DNA from: Chloroflexota bacterium
Lineage (GTDB): Bacteria > Chloroflexota > Ktedonobacteria > Ktedonobacterales > Ktedonobacteraceae
NCBI GenBank assembly: GCA_005881995.1
Contig: VBHV01000102.1
Coordinates: 1-10,192 of the forward strand
Length of the DNA: 10,192 bases
Direction: 5' to 3'
The position numbers were made by a program, and so were the translations under genes. Each line of letters begins with the position of its first letter. Within the stretch, counting starts at the first letter, position 1. Below, one piece after another: positions 1,422 through 10,192 of the stretch. The notes below the pieces were generated by a model. The model did not search any database. It worked only from the letters and a program-made list of their open reading frames with translations, and was not told the DNA's origin.

Positions 1422-3287
1422 TTATTGCCGCCGTTTGTAGAGAACGCCAGAGATTCCTAACAGCGTCATGGAGAGACAATAACACGACACCATCACCCAT
1501 AGCAGTGGAGAAACAGTTGTCAGCCGTGCGCCAAAGGACGTACCTCCGCTCGCATTGAGGTCATTGCCCAGGTTGGAGCCACCCGTGGAGGGGCTTGCGG
1601 TTGGACTGTGCGCCGCCCCGGTAGGAGTCACAGTCGGAGTGGTTTTTACTGTTGGCGTTACTGTCGGAGTGGTTTTTACCGTCGGAGTCACGGTTGGCGT
1701 GGTAGTCGGCGCGTGCGTCGGTGATGGAGATGGCGAGGCGACGGGCGCCGTCGGTGTTGGTGACGTGGGGACAGGTGTTTTATTGACCGGAGAGCCTTGT
1801 ACACCCGGCGTAGTAGTGGGCGTCGGGGTATGGGTTGCGCCCGGCGTTGAAGTGCTTGCTGGCGTAGATGTAGAGTCAGCTGTGGTTCCATTCGTGCTGG
1901 CGGCCAGCTCAATGTTGGTGACCGCCAGCCGTCCGGTGGCTACGTCTCGCGCAATAATGATATGGCTTCCAGAAGTCCATCCGTTTCCGCTGTGGTCATC
2001 AGTGAGCGTCGAGCCGGGTTTGTCACCTTGATTATATAAAGGCAGCGACCCATCAAGAGAAAATGTGACCTGGCTCGAGTGGCTGAAGCCACGCCCGCGC
2101 AGTTGAACAGGTTGGCCGGGTACTGCAGGCCCTTTATCCACGCGTTCCATCCACAGGCCCGGTGATGAAGTTATGTTTGCGATATGACTCTGCGCCCCGC
2201 TGTTGCCTGTAGTCAGGGGAGCAGGAACGCCCGGAATAAGCCACTGAAAGCTGAATGCTGAAACAAGCAATAATACACAGGTCACGCCGATCAAAAGCAG
2301 AGTGCCACCCAGCCACAGCATAAATTCGATGCGTCCTGGGCGCAAGAGCCACCAGCGCAAATGCTCCAGCGGATTAAGGGTGCTGATCCGCTTCCTTCGT
2401 TTCGACGGGTTCACCAGCAGCTGTGCATAGGGCGAAACGCTCGCTCCGCCAGCCGTCCAGGATGAGCCCGGCGATGCTTTGAGCGCGTTCGAGTGAGCTG
2501 GCACGAGGGCGCGCATGCCGCGCTGCTCGCTGAGTTGGGGAGCGGTATCGATTTCATCGACGTGCTGGGCAGAGACAGGGATCATCGCCAGCGAAGGATG
2601 GGATGCCTCATCGAGGCGCAGAGAAATAGGCGCTGTTGGTGCATCGTGTGGGTTGTGTGCATTATTTCCGTTCTGTGCCGTATGGGAAGACGGCCCAGGT
2701 GAGCCAGGCGGAACGGTATCGATCTCGTCGAGTTCGGGCAACCGGCGCGTTGCACGCGCGCGAACGGGCCGCTGCGGTTGTGTTGGCGCTTCCGGCACGA
2801 ACATGGAAAGCGCCGGAAGGCTCCCGGCAGCTTCGTAATCTGGCGATTCGTACTGCCAAATAGGTGACGCTGCTGGAACTGGCCCTTTGAGATTCCCTGT
2901 TGTCCTGTGATGCTGCTCTCCTTCATTGGCAAAGTACCGGCTGGCAGGAAAGCGGCGGGTTGTACCAGGCTGAGCCGGATGCGAGGATGCCCGCGGAGGA
3001 ATGGGCGTTGTTGGATCGGGTTGTCTCCTGGGTTGGGGGGTAGATGGTACGATGCGTTCCCTTCCGGGCCGACCACCGGATTGATGCGGCATGACGTATT
3101 GATAGCCATGCATAGCGGGATCAATCCAGACCGCCGATGTTGCTGGCGCCGCTGACGTTGGAAATACAGGCGATGGATTGAGGGTAAAGCCACAGGCGTA
3201 GCATGTTCCCGCTCCGCGTCTCAACAATTTACTACACATGGGACATTGATCGTAATTATTATCTGTCAGCCAATTATCCGTCTGCAT
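1422..3287 (-). CDS. Zinc-ribbon, Ig/IPT-like, Thr/Pro-stalk membrane protein
   Basis: The product has 621 residues and no function I recognise. The order of parts is: an N-terminal zinc ribbon with CPMC (15-18) and CYAC (29-32); a long Pro/Arg-rich, probably disordered region (about 40-300) containing two copies of a DEIDT.P motif (187-193, 244-250); a basic patch SKRRKR (295-300); a first membrane span (about 322-350); an Ig/IPT-like beta domain (about 375-462, with PGQPVQLRGRGF as the typical first strands); a Thr/Pro stalk (about 463-570) with a ten-residue tandem repeat; and a second span (about 592-616) ending in YKRRQ. The basic residues suggest that both ends are cytoplasmic and the Ig domain plus stalk are outside. 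The ATG at 3287 is the only one after an upstream stop at 3305-3303; its ribosome site is weak (GAAAGAAT). The neighbours lie more than 150 bases away. Confidence 0.85.
   Translation of the reverse strand: MQTDNWLTDNNYDQCPMCSKLLRRGAGTCYACGFTLNPSPVFPTSAAPATSAVWIDPAMHGYQYVMPHQSGGRPGRERIVPSTPQPRRQPDPTTPIPPRASSHPAQPGTTRRFPASRYFANEGEQHHRTTGNLKGPVPAASPIWQYESPDYEAAGSLPALSMFVPEAPTQPQRPVRARATRRLPELDEIDTVPPGSPGPSSHTAQNGNNAHNPHDAPTAPISLRLDEASHPSLAMIPVSAQHVDEIDTAPQLSEQRGMRALVPAHSNALKASPGSSWTAGGASVSPYAQLLVNPSKRRKRISTLNPLEHLRWWLLRPGRIEFMLWLGGTLLLIGVTCVLLLVSAFSFQWLIPGVPAPLTTGNSGAQSHIANITSSPGLWMERVDKGPAVPGQPVQLRGRGFSHSSQVTFSLDGSLPLYNQGDKPGSTLTDDHSGNGWTSGSHIIIARDVATGRLAVTNIELAASTNGTTADSTSTPASTSTPGATHTPTPTTTPGVQGSPVNKTPVPTSPTPTAPVASPSPSPTHAPTTTPTVTPTVKTTPTVTPTVKTTPTVTPTGAAHSPTASPSTGGSNLGNDLNASGGTSFGARLTTVSPLLWVMVSCYCLSMTLLGISGVLYKRRQ
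1628..1696. repeat. 30-bp tandem repeat coding for a Thr/Pro stalk repeat
   Basis: Two copies of a 30-base unit (1628-1657 and 1658-1687), with the start of a degenerate third, encode PTVTPTVKTT twice in the stalk of the 621-residue protein. The block GTCGGAGTGGTTTTTAC occurs in both copies at exactly 30 bases spacing (from 1633 and 1663). Such units commonly expand or shrink by slippage and so change stalk length. Confidence 0.75.
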
Positions 3288-3680: not shown

Positions 3681-3739
3681 GATTTTCTATTCCCGAAATA
3701 TTTGTGTTAAGTGGATTAGAGGTAAAGGAGTGGTTTGAC

Positions 3740-4294
3740 ATGGTAGCTTTGGCAAAGAGAGCTTTGCCAGGTGTAGAGGATCAGCGACCGACGCGGTCCA
3801 TGTTGCGCCTGGAGGATGATGTATTTGAGGAAGAGGAGGACGAGGATGTGGAAGAGGAGTGTGAGGACGAGGAGGCGGAAGACGACCTCGGCGTTGATAA
3901 CGCCATTCGACAGTATCTCGCGGAGATCGGGCGTTTTCCCCTCTTGACCGGCGAACAGGAACAGGCCCTGGCGTGGCGAGTGGTGGATGGAGATATGGAG
4001 GCGCAGCAGCGATTGGTTGAAGCGAATCTTCGCCTGGTTGTGAGCATCGCCAAACGCTACAACAATCACGGGATTGGCCTGCTCGATCTTGTGCAAGAGG
4101 GCAACCTGGGACTCATTCGTGCCGCGCAAAAATTTGATCCCGCGCGCGGCTTCCGTTTCAGCACCTACGCGACCTGGTGGATCCGCCAGGCAATCAGCCG
4201 CGCCGTCGCGGAGCACACACGCACAATTCACATTCCGGTACACGTGGTCGAATTGATCTATAAGATGAAACGCATCGCTCGTAATCTTTACTAG
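3740..4294 (+). CDS. Sigma-70 family sigma factor, N-terminal part (regions 1.2-2), ends at in-frame UAG
   Basis: This is the promoter-recognition subunit of RNA polymerase, group 1/2 type. Start ATG 3740 is chosen because AAAGGAG lies nine bases before it; an in-frame GTG at 3704 has no such site. The 184 residues contain an extremely acidic stretch (25-49, 20 of 25 residues Asp/Glu), region 1.2 ([20 protein letters not shown], 53-72) and region 2 with the core-binding and -10 recognition helices ([17 protein letters not shown] at 91-107, [18 protein letters not shown] at 138-155). It stops at TAG 4292-4294. The frame continues past the stop with ELGRDPVAEEIA, the normal start of region 3; relatives read LYQELGRDP, so a Gln codon CAG appears changed to TAG. 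See the following entry for the other half. It could be a decaying gene, a sequencing error or a truly short product. Confidence 0.82.
4292..4294 (+). other. In-frame amber codon inside the sigma factor gene
   Basis: TAG is codon 185 of a frame otherwise open from 3740 to 4714 (324 residues without it). One base, C to T, separates it from the CAG expected by comparison with the sigma family. No insertion or deletion is involved. A small GGGA/TCCC stem (4300-4312) follows closely, but it is too short to argue for programmed readthrough. Confidence 0.85.
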
Positions 4295-4312
4295 GAACTG
4301 GGACGTGATCCC

Positions 4313-4714
4313 GTGGCTGAGGAGATCGCCAAAGCCGCCAGGCTGACGAAGGAGCGCGTGGTTGAGCTGCAAAGCATGGCCGAGACGCCTATCTCGCTGG
4401 ATGCGCCCCTGATTGACGATGAGCAATACCACCTGGCCGATACGTTGGAGGATACGCGCGCAACGGCCCCGGCAGACGTCGTGACCCACCAGGCGCTACG
4501 TGACCAGATCGCACACGCGCTGGAGACGCTGAACTCACGCGAACGCCAGGTGATCGAACTCCGCTATGGACTGCATGATGGTCATTGCCATACTTTGGAG
4601 GAACTGAGCGCCTTTTTCAAGTTGACCCGCGAACGCATTCGCCAGATCGAGGTCAAGGCGCTGCGCACGCTGCGGCACCCGATCCAGGTGCACCTGCTGC
4701 GCGATTTTGCGTAG
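4313..4714 (+). CDS. Sigma-70 family sigma factor, C-terminal part (regions 3-4)
   Basis: This is the continuation of the sigma factor in the same frame, after the UAG. It holds region 3 (EEIAKAARLTKERVVELQSM, then a linker with ISLDAPLIDDE) and a full region 4: LNSRERQVIELRYGL followed by the -35 recognition helix-turn-helix HTLEELSAFFKLTRERIRQIE and KALRTLRHP. Conservation is not relaxed after the stop, so the change is either recent or not harmful. As a separate protein it would need a restart. GTG 4313 has only a weak GGGA nine bases before it. GTG 4358 has a good AAGGAG, but only three bases away. I therefore read this as the second half of one 324-codon gene rather than as an independent gene. 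A two-protein sigma, as in the SigO/RsoA pair of Bacillus, is a less likely alternative. Confidence 0.75.
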   Translation: MAEEIAKAARLTKERVVELQSMAETPISLDAPLIDDEQYHLADTLEDTRATAPADVVTHQALRDQIAHALETLNSRERQVIELRYGLHDGHCHTLEELSAFFKLTRERIRQIEVKALRTLRHPIQVHLLRDFA

Positions 4715-4902: not shown

Positions 4903-7719
4903 TTACTTGGCCTCGGTCGTTAATTCGGGTGGAAGCGCTTCTATAAGTGGGCCTGGCACACCGGCATTTTCCTGCTCGTCGAGCACCTGGAGAAATGCCT
5001 CTACCACCTGTGAGTCAAACTGGTTGCCAGAGCAGCGTAGTAACTCGGCCCTGGCTTGCAACGTAGACAACGGCTCGCGGTAGACGCGGCGAGAAGTCAT
5101 CGCATCGAATGCATCCACTACGGTGAGAATACGAGCATGCACGGGTATGGCTTCGCCTGCCAGTTGATTAGGGTAGCCCGTGCCGTCCCAGCGTTCGTGA
5201 TGGGCCACAATTATGGTAGCCAATTGCTGGAAGACTCCGCCTATCTCCTCGAGAATCTGGCGACCAATAACCGAGTGCGTGCGCATCACTACCCATTCCT
5301 CCTCAGTCAATGGCCCTGGCTTATATAGGATGGTGTCGGGAATACCGATCTTACCGATATCGTGCAGGATGGCCCCCAGACGCAGTAGATGCAAATCTTC
5401 CTCAGATTGGCCAAGTTTCCGGGCGGTGGCGACAGCAAATTCTGCCAGTCGATAGGCATGCACCAGGGTTCCGCCATCACGTGCTGCTGCTGCAGCGGTA
5501 AGGGCCTGCATACCTACGATCTCACGCACATTTTGATCACCTGCTTCGCGCAGCTCATCAGGGAGAATTATTTCCTTTGAAGGAGTAGGCTCTACGTCAG
5601 CGATGCAGACGCGATTCCTGCCACCCTTTTTGGCCTGGTACATAGCCTGGTCCGCGCATTCAATCAGTTCTTCACGCGTAATCCCGTGAAGTTGATAGAT
5701 GGCTACGCCGATACTGCCACTGACCGCAATCGGCACCACTGCCTGCGTTTCTTCCATCTCCCAATTGAAGGGTTGTGAGTTGAGCGCGATCAGTAAACGC
5801 TGCGCAGTTTGATTCGCGCTCAGCACATCTGTCTCTGTTAAGATGACGGCAAATTCCTCGCCGCCATAGCGTCCCACAAAGTCTTCCAGGCGTACCGTTG
5901 CGCGCAAGCGACTACCGACTTCGCGCAGGATAGCATCACCGGCGCGGTGGCCATAGGTATCATTGATGCGTTTAAAATGATCCAGGTCTACAAAGACGAC
6001 GGCGCAAGAGCTGTCGGTACGCTGACTGCGCGACAGCTCTTCATCGAGCCTGCTCATGATGGCACGGTGATTGGGCAGGCCTGTGACGGCATCGGTGATA
6101 GCGGCCCTGGCCTGTTCTCGATAGAGCCGGTCCAGTTCCAATACCAGCACTTGCTGTTGATCGTAGCCTTCCTGCAATTGTGAGCGCAGCGTCACCTCGC
6201 GATCATTGAGAAACTTCTGTTCTCTCAACAGGGCGTGGACTCGTGGGAGTTCACTGGCGACCAGGCCAACCAGGAACGAAATTATCGTAATGCCCAGAAC
6301 AAGTATAGCCCAGTTACTATTAGGGATGAAAGTAGGTAGCCAGGAACTGGAAACCGTCGCCCAGATGCCGATCAGAGAGGCCCCGGAACCTACGAGGGAC
6401 ATCACCAGTAGAGTTAAACGCTGCCTGCTCGGGAGTTCGATACGATTTCTCCGGCGGTAGAGGAGCCAGAGGACAAACCAGAAAAGCTGGACAATCGTAC
6501 ATACCCAGATAACGGTTGTTCCCGCTTGCAACACGTTGTAGATAGCCAGCGCCAGGTCATCCGGACGTATCACTGAGCCAAAGAGCGCTGGTAAAAGGAT
6601 CAGGGACAGGACGGCCACAATAGCGACAATGAACCCCTGTATAACAATGCTGAAGGCCGGTACACCGTAGCGATTGACCTTTGCCAGTGATATGGGCAGG
6701 CGGCGGTCCTGAGCAACAACCACTAGCAAGCGCGAAAACATGAGGATATAGGCGATGGTAAGCGCAACCTGGCTTACAGCAAGTACGATCGCCGTCACTG
6801 TACCAACCGTTGCACCAAAAACCATCTGGATGGCAAGGATATTTGCCCCCATGCCTCTCGATGCAGAAGACGGCACAATCACCATTATGCCAAAGGTTCC
6901 CATCATGTAGGCGATAAACGCAATCGCTGACCCCCACCAGACAAACGCTGTGGCACGCCTGGCTCCCGGTGTTCCACCACGAAGCTCGCCACCCATGAAC
7001 AGGGGAATATCCACGCCAAGATATGCCAGAATGACTACTCCGTAGACGGCAAAGTTTCCCTGGTTAGGCAGCCACATTTGCGGGCTGGTCAACATTGTTG
7101 CTGCCGGGCGTCCCACCGAAAGCCACCATACGCCAGCGAACCCCAGCAGTAGAAAGACACTTACATAAAGAGTGGCCAGCACCAGCAGGATGCGTTTGAC
7201 CCAGCGCAATGGCAAACAGGCGATGGCTGTTGGCACAATCAGGATGAACACGATGGCGATACCTTGCTGTAACGGGGTCGTAAACCACGTTGGAACAAGA
7301 TACTGAATGAAGATCAGACCAGTTTGTATTGCTGAGACGACGGCAAGCACACCTGGCAACCAGGCGCAAAAGGCTGAAAAAAAACTCCACCTTTGACCGA
7401 GAATACGTGTCGCCCAGAGATAGGGAGCGCCTTGCCCCGGATAGCGCAGTGCCAGCCAGCGGGTGACAAACGCGCAGGGAACGAGAAAGGTAAGCAGACC
7501 CAGCACCCAGTAGACAAACGCCGCTGGACCGCCGAACTGTACACCATCATTATTTGCAACAAATAGAACAATCAGCAGCATTAATACCGTCAGGTCCCGC
7601 GTCCCCAACACTGTCGGCAGCCTGTGTTGCTCCGGCATATCAGAAGGTTGGAAAGCCAGTTCCGGGGAATACGGTTGTTCAGGTGGCACAACCACCTGGG
7701 ACGGTGAATCTATGACCAT
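4903..7719 (-). CDS. APC-type permease fused to GGDEF and HD-GYP domains (c-di-GMP turnover)
   Basis: The product has 938 residues. Residues about 35-490 form a complete 12-span amino acid permease (APC superfamily) module; GGPAAFVYW, LRYPGQGAPYLWATRILG and, in the sixth span, FMGGELRG fit that family. A likely coiled coil (about 497-540) leads to a GGDEF domain (about 541-705) with VDLDHFKRINDTYGH, active motif RYGGEEF (617-623) and inhibitory site RLED (610-613) at the correct distance. An HD-GYP domain (about 730-912) follows, with HDIGKIG (786-792), HHERWDGTGYP (840-850) and the DAFDA metal motif (869-873). Both enzymatic halves look intact, so synthesis of c-di-GMP from GTP and its hydrolysis are both predicted, at the inner face of the membrane. 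The permease part may sense, or transport and sense, an amino acid. AGGAG lies six bases before the ATG. The gene is divergent from the gene at 7981, with no operon partner. Confidence 0.92.
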   Translation of the reverse strand: MVIDSPSQVVVPPEQPYSPELAFQPSDMPEQHRLPTVLGTRDLTVLMLLIVLFVANNDGVQFGGPAAFVYWVLGLLTFLVPCAFVTRWLALRYPGQGAPYLWATRILGQRWSFFSAFCAWLPGVLAVVSAIQTGLIFIQYLVPTWFTTPLQQGIAIVFILIVPTAIACLPLRWVKRILLVLATLYVSVFLLLGFAGVWWLSVGRPAATMLTSPQMWLPNQGNFAVYGVVILAYLGVDIPLFMGGELRGGTPGARRATAFVWWGSAIAFIAYMMGTFGIMVIVPSSASRGMGANILAIQMVFGATVGTVTAIVLAVSQVALTIAYILMFSRLLVVVAQDRRLPISLAKVNRYGVPAFSIVIQGFIVAIVAVLSLILLPALFGSVIRPDDLALAIYNVLQAGTTVIWVCTIVQLFWFVLWLLYRRRNRIELPSRQRLTLLVMSLVGSGASLIGIWATVSSSWLPTFIPNSNWAILVLGITIISFLVGLVASELPRVHALLREQKFLNDREVTLRSQLQEGYDQQQVLVLELDRLYREQARAAITDAVTGLPNHRAIMSRLDEELSRSQRTDSSCAVVFVDLDHFKRINDTYGHRAGDAILREVGSRLRATVRLEDFVGRYGGEEFAVILTETDVLSANQTAQRLLIALNSQPFNWEMEETQAVVPIAVSGSIGVAIYQLHGITREELIECADQAMYQAKKGGRNRVCIADVEPTPSKEIILPDELREAGDQNVREIVGMQALTAAAAARDGGTLVHAYRLAEFAVATARKLGQSEEDLHLLRLGAILHDIGKIGIPDTILYKPGPLTEEEWVVMRTHSVIGRQILEEIGGVFQQLATIIVAHHERWDGTGYPNQLAGEAIPVHARILTVVDAFDAMTSRRVYREPLSTLQARAELLRCSGNQFDSQVVEAFLQVLDEQENAGVPGPLIEALPPELTTEAK

Positions 7720-7980: not shown

Positions 7981-9486
7981 ATGCAAAAGCAAACCAATCA
8001 AACGCAGTGGGGAGCGAGCGCTTTGCTGGTTGTCAGAGGTGCCAGCATTGTAGGGATCGTAATGCTATGTCTGACAGTATTGTTCTTTACAGCATTCCGT
8101 TCGCATGTTTTTGCGGTGAGCAATAGCGGAACAGGCAGTGCAACAAGCGGCCCAACTTCGGGGCCGGTTGGAACCACCATTACGGTCAATGGTACTGGCT
8201 GGTCTGAGGCTGATGGCAAGCAGGCCAGTTTCGGCTACATGAGTAACTCCAACTGTTCCACGGTAGCGGATTCACAAACTGGCACCTTGCAAGGCGGTAA
8301 ATTCAATGGTTGGTTTCGCTGGCCGCAGGGTACCCCATTGGGCACTTATACAGTATGCGTCACCGTTGCCGGCACTATTGCTATTGCCGGGTCCTTTAAC
8401 GAACTCTCAACCTCGCCACCACAGGTATCGGTCTCTCCTGGCACACTGGTCGAAAGACAGCAGGCAACCATTACCGCGTCAAACTATTACCCCCAGGGGA
8501 CGACAGTCAACTTCAACTGGGTATCCCTGAGTAATCAAGTCGAATTTGGTATAAACGGTACTACTTCAGATAGCAACGGCATGGCGAAGGTGAATTTTAT
8601 TGTGCCGGTCACATCAATGGAAAGCGGACCTTATATGATAGAGGCGATTGTGGGCAGTGGACAACCGCCGACACTCTCTTCATCGGTGAATTTTATCTAT
8701 AATGCGCCTGCGGTGCGACCATCACCTACACCCGGCAGAACACCGTCGCCTACGCCTTCACCGACCGCTACGCCGACCGCCGACCCGACTCCCGCAAATA
8801 CGCCGACGGTTCAGGCTAGCACAACAGCGGCAACAGGCGCAACGCCCACTCCAGTAATCACTCAAACTACGGGCGGAAATTCGACCCCAACAACCAACAC
8901 CACCCCTGGCAGCAAGGGAAGCACAACCAATCCACCCAACATGCTCCTCCTGGTCGGCGGTGTGGCAGGCACGCTCTTCCTGTTGATTACTATCCTTATC
9001 ATTGTTCTGTTTGTCCGGCGTAGACGTTCAACATTTGCGGCTGCGCTGCCAGAGGTGCAAGTGAGGCTACCTTTCCCACCCGCTGGCGCAGCACCGAGTC
9101 CCTGGTCAAGGCAGCCGGGGACCTTCATGAACAATGGAGGACTACCTCCCAACGGGTTCAATGCTAATCCCGGCGGAAATGGATCATATCCTCCCAATTG
9201 GCCTACTGGTATCTTTACGCCGCCACCAGACAGCGTCCCTATTCAAACTAATTTGTCCGCGCAGCTAGCTTCACCGGCCAATGGTTTCCAGCCCGGCGGC
9301 CCGCCTTCGTTTATCCCGTCGCAGAAGTCACCGGTCCCATCTTATGCCGGCGTGGCGCCGGGGGCAGGCGGTAACGGTGTGGCTCCCGTCCCTCTCGATC
9401 CAACGCTAGAAGCTTTACGGCGGCAGGCCCAGACAGGTTTATTTGCCCCACCACGGCCACGCCTGGATGAAGTAAGCACAAAATAA
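7981..9486 (+). CDS. Membrane-anchored protein with two Ig-like domains and a Thr/Pro stalk
   Basis: The product has 501 residues and is not recognised as a named family. A hydrophobic N-terminal segment (about 21-46) acts as signal or anchor. Two Ig/IPT-like beta domains follow: 53-145, with GPVGTTITVNGTGW as its first strands and a possible disulfide C92-C126, and 146-240, starting PPQVSVSPGTLVERQQATITASNY. A Thr/Pro/Ser stalk spans 245-320. Then comes a strong membrane span (321-346) with RRRR just inside, and a 150-residue Pro/Gly/Asn-rich tail likely in the cytoplasm that ends in a charged helix-prone patch (PTLEALRRQAQTG). GPVGTTITVNGTG is typical of bacterial IPT/TIG-like surface modules. 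The layout repeats that of the zinc-ribbon protein at 1422-3287. The next gene starts 41 bases after the stop, so the two are probably co-transcribed. Role unknown; surface adhesion or sensing is a guess. Confidence 0.85.
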   Translation: MQKQTNQTQWGASALLVVRGASIVGIVMLCLTVLFFTAFRSHVFAVSNSGTGSATSGPTSGPVGTTITVNGTGWSEADGKQASFGYMSNSNCSTVADSQTGTLQGGKFNGWFRWPQGTPLGTYTVCVTVAGTIAIAGSFNELSTSPPQVSVSPGTLVERQQATITASNYYPQGTTVNFNWVSLSNQVEFGINGTTSDSNGMAKVNFIVPVTSMESGPYMIEAIVGSGQPPTLSSSVNFIYNAPAVRPSPTPGRTPSPTPSPTATPTADPTPANTPTVQASTTAATGATPTPVITQTTGGNSTPTTNTTPGSKGSTTNPPNMLLLVGGVAGTLFLLITILIIVLFVRRRRSTFAAALPEVQVRLPFPPAGAAPSPWSRQPGTFMNNGGLPPNGFNANPGGNGSYPPNWPTGIFTPPPDSVPIQTNLSAQLASPANGFQPGGPPSFIPSQKSPVPSYAGVAPGAGGNGVAPVPLDPTLEALRRQAQTGLFAPPRPRLDEVSTK

Positions 9487-9527: not shown

Positions 9528-10192
9528 ATGAAAGATGGTCCGCCGTCAGAATTACACAGGCCTGTGTGTCTGGCTAAACATCTATTTGCTAGGCCCACCT
9601 TGCTCCAGTACGGCATTGGTATTCTTTCGTTCTTGCTCTTAGGCGTTTCTTGCTACAGCGTTATTACCGTCGCTACATCGGCACATGCAAATGTGTCTCT
9701 TCAGCAGTTCAGTGGCAAGGTAATCGCTAGACGGCCACCTGCCGATGCCGGTACTCCGACCATAACCGATACTTCATCACCGACAGTAACGACCACGCCT
9801 TCAGCAACTCCCACCAACACACCGTCTCCTACACCGACAACCACCTCGACTCCTACAACTACGCCCACCAACACACCATCGCCTTCAGTGACAAATACGC
9901 CTTCACCGACTTCCACAAGTACCCGCACACCCCATTCCTCACCGACAACCACACCGCCATCACCAACGGCATTTGTTGGACAAACCACAACTCCTGGCCC
10001 GACACCGGCAAGTAGCGCGACGGCGACAGCCGTTATCAGGCCGGGAACAGGTCAGAATCAAACACCAGGCACCACACCCGCTCCATCAAACAATGAGAAT
10101 AGGCAAAGCGGCCCACCGGCGGACAATGGCTTCCCTTACATGTACATCGTGGTTGGCCTGTCAGGTATTGCGATCGTCGGATTCCTGTTTAT
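9528..10192 (+). CDS. Secreted Thr/Pro-stalk membrane protein, 3' end outside window
   Basis: The ATG at 9528 has GAGGAA seven bases upstream, and the frame stays open to the window edge (221 residues seen). A cytoplasmic leader is followed by a signal peptide (hydrophobic 28-50) with a cleavage-like SAHA/N site near 54-55. Then comes a short segment (VSLQQFSGKVIARRPPADAG) and a Thr/Pro/Ser stalk of roughly 110 residues (75-185) with repeated PTNTPSP units. A Gly/Asn-rich part and the start of a membrane span (YMYIVVGLSGIAIVGFLF, 204-221) close the visible part. Unlike its upstream neighbour it has no Ig domain before the stalk. By analogy a cytoplasmic tail should follow the span. It is 41 bases downstream of the 501-residue gene on the same strand, so a shared operon is likely. 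The gene was found by reading the frame directly from a good ribosome site. Function unknown. Confidence 0.8.
   Translation, partial: MKDGPPSELHRPVCLAKHLFARPTLLQYGIGILSFLLLGVSCYSVITVATSAHANVSLQQFSGKVIARRPPADAGTPTITDTSSPTVTTTPSATPTNTPSPTPTTTSTPTTTPTNTPSPSVTNTPSPTSTSTRTPHSSPTTTPPSPTAFVGQTTTPGPTPASSATATAVIRPGTGQNQTPGTTPAPSNNENRQSGPPADNGFPYMYIVVGLSGIAIVGFLF
9810..9917 (+). repeat. Imperfect 54-bp repeat in the Thr/Pro stalk
   Basis: CCCACCAACACACC occurs at 9810 and again at 9864, 54 bases apart, marking two imperfect 18-residue units that each begin PTNTPSP. The second copy has diverged in its later half. It lies wholly within the stalk-coding part of the last gene. Confidence 0.55.

What the first reader, a model, noticed from the sequence alone, without database searches (positions are those of the whole stretch)
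4903..7719. A 12-span amino acid permease fused to active-looking GGDEF and HD-GYP domains
One chain carries a full APC-type transporter, a coiled coil, an intact diguanylate cyclase (GGEEF, RxxD) and an intact HD-GYP phosphodiesterase. Transporter modules fused to histidine kinases are known (SLC5-type CbrA). I do not know a characterised APC-GGDEF-HD-GYP protein. It suggests a nutrient receptor that sets c-di-GMP in both directions, with the ligand state deciding which activity wins.
Basis: partly seen in the sequence, partly recalled or inferred. Interest (0 to 1): 0.78.

Follow-up and report, generated by a model that had tools for sequence, protein, structure and literature searches.

The report
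Amino-acid permease turned c-di-GMP receptor
A bacterium's amino-acid-transporter-like membrane protein is fused to enzyme domains predicted to make and destroy the messenger c-di-GMP, and it belongs to a large family in which the same kind of transporter fold also feeds a histidine kinase, so it probably works as a nutrient sensor.

Summary
In detail: one 938-codon ORF (4903-7719, minus) encodes an AdiC/GadC-like 12-span permease, a continuous helix, an intact GGDEF (GGEEF, RLED) and an intact HD-GYP domain. It is no assembly join: 118 of 120 listed homologues carry all three domains, and 9 of 47 genomes of the class Ktedonobacteria hold the fusion.

(1) Related genomes fuse the same permease type to HisKA-HATPase, or to GGDEF without HD-GYP: it is an exchangeable input. 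(2) The TM12-to-GGDEF helix differs between members almost only by whole heptads: 148 of 149 measured lengths equal 4 mod 7, with at least 19 length changes on a tree and one of phase; the GGDEF-to-HD-GYP linker shows 51 and 46. This is expected if the permease drives the cyclase through a coiled coil of fixed phase. (3) Both fused groups share marks that unfused relatives lack (Gln61; a junction motif).

Best reading: a solute-sensing receptor ('transceptor') controlling c-di-GMP. Ligand, transport and direction of control are untested. Ten paper searches listed no description. New variant of a known kind.

The parts
4903..7719 (-). whole fusion gene, 938 aa: APC permease - signalling helix - GGDEF - HD-GYP
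6250..7614 (-). APC-type permease domain, residues 36-490, 12 spans
   Evidence: Pfam AA_permease_2; AdiC/GadC matches
7537..7539 (-). Gln61 in TM1, in over 90% of GGDEF- and HK-fused permeases, not among the four commonest letters in unfused ones
6241..6252 (-). E-x-P-R junction, residues 490-493, end of TM12; start of the P-R-x6-E-Q motif shared with the HK fusions
6097..6249 (-). signalling helix (predicted coiled coil), residues 491-541; length changes almost only in whole heptads in the family
5611..6102 (-). GGDEF (diguanylate cyclase) domain, residues 540-703
5881..5892 (-). I-site RxxD (RLED), residues 610-613
5851..5865 (-). GGEEF signature, residues 619-623
5005..5490 (-). HD-GYP domain (HD_5), residues 744-905
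5359..5364 (-). HD metal pair, residues 786-787
5170..5202 (-). HHERWDGTGYP, residues 840-850
3704..4714 (+). convergent RpoD-like sigma gene (in-frame stop at 4292-4294); the same neighbour lies beside the fusion in several related loci; synteny marker, not part of the mechanism

Best explanation
It is a membrane receptor made from an amino-acid permease. A small solute, probably an amino acid or amine, binds in the central pocket of the 12-span domain and shifts its conformation. TM12 continues without a break into a parallel coiled coil of a dimer, and the shift is passed along this coil as a change of register or rotation, as in other coiled-coil-linked cyclases. This changes how the two GGDEF domains meet and so the rate of c-di-GMP synthesis; the I-site gives feedback; the HD-GYP domain degrades c-di-GMP. 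Shown by sequence and model: intact motifs, uninterrupted helix, heptad-phased linker, exchange of outputs behind the same permease type. Inferred: dimer, ligand, direction of control, enzyme activities. Whether solute is also transported is open; I lean to binding with little transport, as in Ks-Amt5 and Ssy1.
For: Full architecture in 118 of 120 listed homologues. GGEEF, HD and GYP residues in 82 of 82 aligned rows; GGEEF in 149 of 151 GGDEF-fused rows, the two others being cut frames. Same permease type fused to HisKA-HATPase or GGDEF alone. Linker length: 148 of 149 rows are 4 mod 7; at least 19 changes, one of phase; control linker 51 changes, 46 of phase. HK fusions: 48 residues in 121, 41 in 1, unmeasured in 2 of 124 rows. 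Unbroken helix 467-541; 471-560 in the HK fusion model, of lower confidence (pLDDT 73.6). Fusion-specific Q61, P170, W453 and junction motif, while core positions N56, W120, G235, P239, E245 match unfused relatives. Permease domain diverges faster than GGDEF (61 of 66 pairs among 12 chosen rows). Precedents: Ks-Amt5, CbrA, Ssy1, IsPadC coil.
Against: No ligand, activity or dimer is shown. AlphaFold gave a monomer with pTM 0.59, so domain placement is unsure. Hydrophobic a/d contrast along the coil is modest (234 of 5000 shuffles as high). One row (P0118) breaks the heptad rule. Heptad steps could partly be slippage in a repetitive helix. Two related ORFs (G033:C1, G036:C2) match P0001 only from residue 392-394 on, so an output can persist behind a partial permease. 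Two of four GGDEF-only rows scanned do not reach AA_permease_2, and that clade has long branches, so some copies may have lost the pocket. PilZ was found in 0 of 6 genomes, so the c-di-GMP target is unknown. One common origin of the GGDEF and HK fusions is neither shown nor rejected.
Confidence: 0.7

Rival explanations
1. Reverse direction: a working amino-acid transporter whose activity is set from inside, the GGDEF/HD-GYP part acting as a c-di-GMP-binding or c-di-GMP-setting regulator of transport.
For: An APC-fold protein with a bound cyclic dinucleotide is solved (KimA with c-di-AMP, in the match list). I-site kept in 80-81 of 82 rows.
Against: Output swap to a histidine kinase behind the same permease type fits an input role. 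Both active sites are kept. D237 at the TM6 break is Asn in 28% of GGDEF-fused rows but Glu in all HK-fused and 71% of the 41 unfused rows, odd for a conserved proton-coupled carrier, though the role of this residue is recalled only.
Confidence: 0.12
2. Dual-function transporter-receptor (a variant that overlaps with the best explanation): it transports its ligand and signals flux or occupancy at the same time, as CbrA does with histidine.
For: Core permease positions are shared with unfused relatives. CbrA binds histidine and mediates its proton-gradient-driven uptake (passages).
Against: 8 of the 9 genomes with the fusion also hold unfused permeases of this type at E <= 1e-70 (none for G008), so uptake need not be its job. 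Asn at D237 in 28% of rows.
Confidence: 0.3
3. The permease is only a membrane anchor that places a constitutive cyclase/phosphodiesterase; no ligand gating.
For: ORFs with only part of the permease before GGDEF-HD-GYP exist. AA_permease_2 is not reached in two of four GGDEF-only rows.
Against: Heptad-phased linker, fusion-specific residues inside TM1 and conserved core positions, and 37 fusion-labelled rows with permease domains of at least 370 residues in one clade.
Confidence: 0.08
4. Assembly or frameshift joining of two genes.
For: None found beyond the oddity; the neighbouring sigma gene does have an in-frame stop.
Against: 118 of 120 listed homologues, 52-99% identical, have the same joined form; also in 9 of 47 genomes.
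Confidence: 0.01

Closest known systems
CbrA of Pseudomonas (SLC5-STAC-PAS-histidine kinase transceptor)
   Same: LeuT-fold transporter at the N-terminus fused to a cytoplasmic signalling output; senses an amino acid (PMC13022988, passages including parts of the abstract)
   Different: SLC5 not APC family, 13 spans, STAC and PAS between membrane and output, kinase output; here TM12 runs straight into a predicted coiled coil and the output is GGDEF-HD-GYP
Ks-Amt5 of Kuenenia (ammonium transporter-histidine kinase)
   Same: uptake transporter recruited as sensory module; binds its ion but does not efficiently translocate it (PMC5764959, abstract, outline and section 7)
   Different: Amt fold, kinase output
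Ssy1 of yeast
   Same: amino-acid receptor derived from amino-acid transporters, transport undetectable (PMC12958826, passages)
   Different: eukaryotic, signals through partner proteins, no fused enzyme
AdiC / GadC (APC antiporters)
   Different: plain transporters
IsPadC-type phytochrome-linked cyclases
   Same: input drives the GGDEF dimer through a coiled coil with two registers (PMC6005682, passages)
   Different: soluble photoreceptor input
5TMR-LYT sensors
   Same: transporter-like (S-component) membrane fold behind exchangeable outputs including GGDEF and kinases (PMC11109136, passages)
   Different: unrelated 6-helix fold

Membership tests
APC superfamily, AA_permease_2 | Pfam profile over the gathering score and 12-span AdiC-like fold | tested here: met
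APC superfamily, AA_permease_2 | Gly-x-Gly break motif of TM1 (recalled) | tested here: inconclusive
   printed AdiC alignments begin at chain residues 31-34, after the motif as recalled; GadC aligns through TM1 without one
APC superfamily, AA_permease_2 | solute transport | not testable with these tools
   needs uptake assay
GGDEF diguanylate cyclase | GGDEF/GGEEF signature, metal and base-binding residues (roles recalled) | tested here: met
   GGEEF 82 of 82; D578, N586, D587, D595 81 of 82 with one gap
GGDEF diguanylate cyclase | enzyme activity | not testable with these tools
   needs assay
HD-GYP phosphodiesterase | HD pair and HHExxDGxGYP | tested here: met
   82 of 82 for H786, D787, H840, E842, D845, G846, G848, Y849, P850; H841 81 of 82
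HD-GYP phosphodiesterase | enzyme activity | not testable with these tools
   needs assay
SLC5-STAC-HK transceptors (CbrA type) | STAC domain between membrane and output | tested here: not met
   no STAC among the Pfam matches at E <= 0.01; unbroken helix 467-541 instead
SLC5-STAC-HK transceptors (CbrA type) | SLC5 membrane domain | tested here: not met
   AA_permease_2 and AA_permease are the only membrane families matched
transporter-derived receptor (transceptor), functional sense | transporter fold covalently joined to an intact signalling output | tested here: met
transporter-derived receptor (transceptor), functional sense | ligand occupancy changes output | not testable with these tools
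   only indirect support

The most novel reading that the evidence does not exclude
Ktedonobacteria turned an SLC7/AdiC-like permease into a general sensory domain: one ancestral receptor permease, marked by Gln61 and the P-R-x6-E-Q junction, had its output exchanged between diguanylate cyclase, cyclase/phosphodiesterase and histidine kinase, each driven through a heptad-locked coil straight off TM12 with no adaptor domain. It would be a bacterial APC-type nutrient receptor family and the main input to c-di-GMP in some of these genomes.
Probability: 0.45. Interest if true: 0.8.

Novelty: new variant of a known kind. Interest (0 to 1): 0.66.

Why it matters
What tells most diguanylate cyclases to switch on is unknown (general knowledge). 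Here the candidate signal class can be read from the input domain, and the family offers one input fold with three outputs plus natural coil lengths (39 to 81 residues between anchors) in heptad steps. That makes it a ready test bed for how a transporter's conformational cycle becomes an enzyme signal. In 6 genomes examined, 25 of the 32 GGDEF hits of at least 119 bits (49 hits listed in all) lie in stretches matching this fusion, 20 of them over the whole permease and 5 over part of it, so the permease looks like the main c-di-GMP input there.

Tried and rejected
Rejected: assembly join. A frameshift in the neighbouring sigma gene, my first guess (note), was wrong: it is an in-frame stop. Spread beyond the class: in 400 Chloroflexota genomes (E <= 1e-85, only two candidates per genome scored), permease + GGDEF spans were found only in the same 9 genomes; the other matches begin at residue 470 or later, save one cut copy (from 235) in G033, one of the nine. 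Rfam: no match at gathering score in the window; no tRNA. One origin against two of the fusions: unresolved (AU p 0.385 for all fused as one clade). The first control-linker script found nothing because of a bad pattern and was replaced. Two further loop distances in the permease hardly vary and so say little.

Rows and labels: labels 50 rows 'APC' alone; P0227 and P0167 (altered or cut HK fusions) and L029_3556 (cut copy of an L045 fusion) are mislabelled there. In one search two of these (L029_3556, P0227) sit among the 42 'alone' rows; 13 rows were dropped (6 short, 7 duplicates). In one search P0167 is among the 41 unfused rows; the single 'unfused' row with the junction motif is P0167 (sequence). 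Linker: of 151 rows (near-copies included; the 149 measured are 121 proteins and 28 locus rows), 16 anchors were set by eye; P0003 and P0086 had no anchor in the script (P0086 counts 60 by hand from the print; P0003 lacks residues 530-606). Control: 128 of 135 rows measured.

Papers: ten searches; no title or abstract start in the listings describes an APC-GGDEF or APC-kinase protein; only open-licence PMC text is covered. Passages of PMC8871633 and PMC10433425 gave nothing on such fusions. Motif roles of GGDEF, I-site, HD-GYP and of AdiC Glu208 are recalled.

Full report

Is it real? Of 262 homologues at E <= 0.001 the best 120 are listed; 118 of these carry permease, GGDEF and HD domains, and those whose source name gives an organism are Ktedonobacteraceae. 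A scan of genome contigs gave one locus, in Ktedonosporobacter rubrisoli (L001; class Ktedonobacteria). In 47 genomes of its class, itself included, 9 have a match at E <= 1e-150, and each of the 9 holds at least one full-span fusion; G034 has five matches, three of them full and two without HD-GYP. K. rubrisoli itself has 16 permease-only matches and no fusion. So an assembly join is excluded. No genome is held for the window itself.

Enzyme sites. In 82 aligned rows GGEEF and the HD and GYP residues are in all rows and the I-site in 80-81. Over all 151 GGDEF-fused rows gathered (near-copies included), 123 have I-site, GGEEF, HD and GYP; 9 more lack only the I-site pattern; GGEEF is missing only in two cut frames (L040, L046); four rows have a degenerate HD-GYP (L025, L027, L028, L042) and P0084 misses the GYP pattern. 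None of the 9 genomes has an EAL match and all 9 have HD_5 matches, so HD-GYP is the only one of the two c-di-GMP phosphodiesterase families found. PilZ is in 0 of 6 and MshEN in 8 of 9. The target of the messenger is thus open.

One input, several outputs. A wider search of the class (E <= 1e-75) and the fetched regions show the same permease type followed by a histidine kinase in five genomes (G021, G032, G045, G046, G047; Pfam HisKA and HATPase_c on the three scanned), and by GGDEF without HD-GYP in others (L030, L043, L044, and a tandem pair in L045; AA_permease_2 itself is not reached in two of four such rows scanned). The protein search with the HK fusion lists 120 of 1390 hits; all but P0227 and P0242 of the listed carry permease, HisKA and HATPase. 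The search with the GGDEF-only form found just two APC-GGDEF proteins among 34 hits, a near copy (P0122) and a full fusion (P0123). Conversely, an output half 57% identical to ours stands behind a HAMP domain in L049.

Tree. 92 permease domains (IQ-TREE quick): all GGDEF-fused ones lie on one side of a branch (support 100), all HK-fused ones form another group (100), once two mislabelled rows are put right (L029_3556, P0227). Holding all fused rows together is not rejected (p-AU 0.385). GGDEF-only rows form one group inside the GGDEF clade (99), apart from the broken L040; loss of HD-GYP is the simpler reading, but the root is not fixed. Several branches are long, so deep order is unsure.

What fused permeases share. 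In 149 GGDEF-fused, 123 HK-fused and 41 unfused rows (one of them, P0167, a cut HK fusion), Gln61 at the end of TM1 has frequency 0.91, 0.93 and is not among the top four letters in the unfused; P170 0.97, 0.74, against Arg 0.93; W453 0.87, 0.98, against mostly Val/Ile. The motif P[RHKYQ]x6[EQDK]Q after TM12 is in 130 of 152, 122 of 125 and 1 of 48 rows, the one being P0167; the strict form PRx6EQ in 114, 114 and 1. N56, W120, G235, P239 and E245 are common to all three groups. This looks like a retained binding fold with receptor-specific additions. D237, opposite the Glu of AdiC's G-V-E in the alignment (Glu208 by recall), is Asp 0.64 / Asn 0.28 in GGDEF fusions, Glu in all HK fusions, Glu 0.71 in unfused ones: a hint, no more, that some GGDEF fusions do not couple to protons.

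The heptad rule. From the Glu of the TM12 junction to the Asp that opens the GGDEF domain, 149 of 151 rows were measured: 60 (71 rows), 53 (46, the window's own among them), 67 (25), 74 (3), and one each of 39, 46, 81 and 35. All but the last (P0118) equal 4 mod 7. On a FastTree of permease plus GGDEF the lengths need at least 19 changes, the phase only 1; the GGDEF-to-HD-GYP linker (128 of 135 rows, 22 lengths) needs 51 changes of length and 46 of phase. HK fusions have 48 residues from junction to phospho-acceptor motif in 121 of 124 rows, 41 in one, two unmeasured. Over 82 rows the coil has a hydrophobic stripe at one heptad position (0.93, Ala counted), but the a/d contrast without Ala is only modest (234 of 5000 shuffles as high). 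The strict phase is what a rotating or register-shifting dimeric coil needs and what a loose tether does not; slippage in a repetitive helix could contribute. IsPadC shows such a register switch for a GGDEF enzyme (passages).

Mechanism. Shown: architecture, conservation, exchange of outputs, phase rule. Inferred: ligand binding in the permease pocket; a dimer with a parallel coil; ligand-dependent register; c-di-GMP as output. The permease part diverges faster than the output (12 chosen rows: mean pairwise identity 0.34 against 0.50; 61 of 66 pairs), as expected if different copies see different ligands, though relaxed constraint would give the same. [quoted passage not shown]

Neighbourhood. 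A convergent RpoD-like sigma gene lies beside the fusion in the window and, in the same convergent order, at L014, L018, L022, L023, L024 and L050 (the last with a partial permease); at L015 (by eye) and L016 with one ORF between. No such match appeared in the roughly 1.5 kb flanks of the other fusion loci. This speaks for old, vertical inheritance of one lineage. I see no gene nearby that names the ligand.

Known or new. Fusing transporters to signalling outputs is a known kind (CbrA, Ks-Amt5). I saw no description of APC-GGDEF-HD-GYP or APC-kinase proteins in the listings of ten searches of the held papers. I file it as a new variant of a known kind; the swap of outputs and the heptad rule raise its interest above a simple odd fusion.

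Noticed in passing
window 3704-4714 (+): RpoD-like sigma gene interrupted by an in-frame stop at 4292-4294, while relatives (e.g. L014, 318 aa) have an intact reading frame; sequence error, pseudogene or strain variant cannot be told apart.
   Followed up: partly
L034-L038: Large family of APC permease-histidine kinase fusions in Ktedonobacteria (118 of 120 listed hits of 1390 carry permease, HisKA and HATPase); no partner regulator sought.
   Followed up: partly
L045:2325-6512: Two APC-GGDEF fusions in tandem, three bases apart.
   Followed up: no
L025, L027, L028, L042: Fusions with degenerate HD-GYP but intact GGEEF.
   Followed up: no
genomes G021, G033-G036, G044 (PilZ); also G008, G022, G023 (EAL): No PilZ (0 of 6) and no EAL (0 of 9) although GGDEF and HD-GYP proteins are present: c-di-GMP targets unknown; MshEN in 8 of 9.
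   Followed up: partly
L049:807-3167: HAMP-GGDEF-HD-GYP protein whose output half is 57% identical to the window's, i.e. the same output behind another input.
   Followed up: no
window 1422-3287, 7981-9486, 9528-10190: Pro/Thr-rich, probably surface proteins (by eye) without a Pfam family over cut-off (Mucin below cut-off for the last).
   Followed up: no
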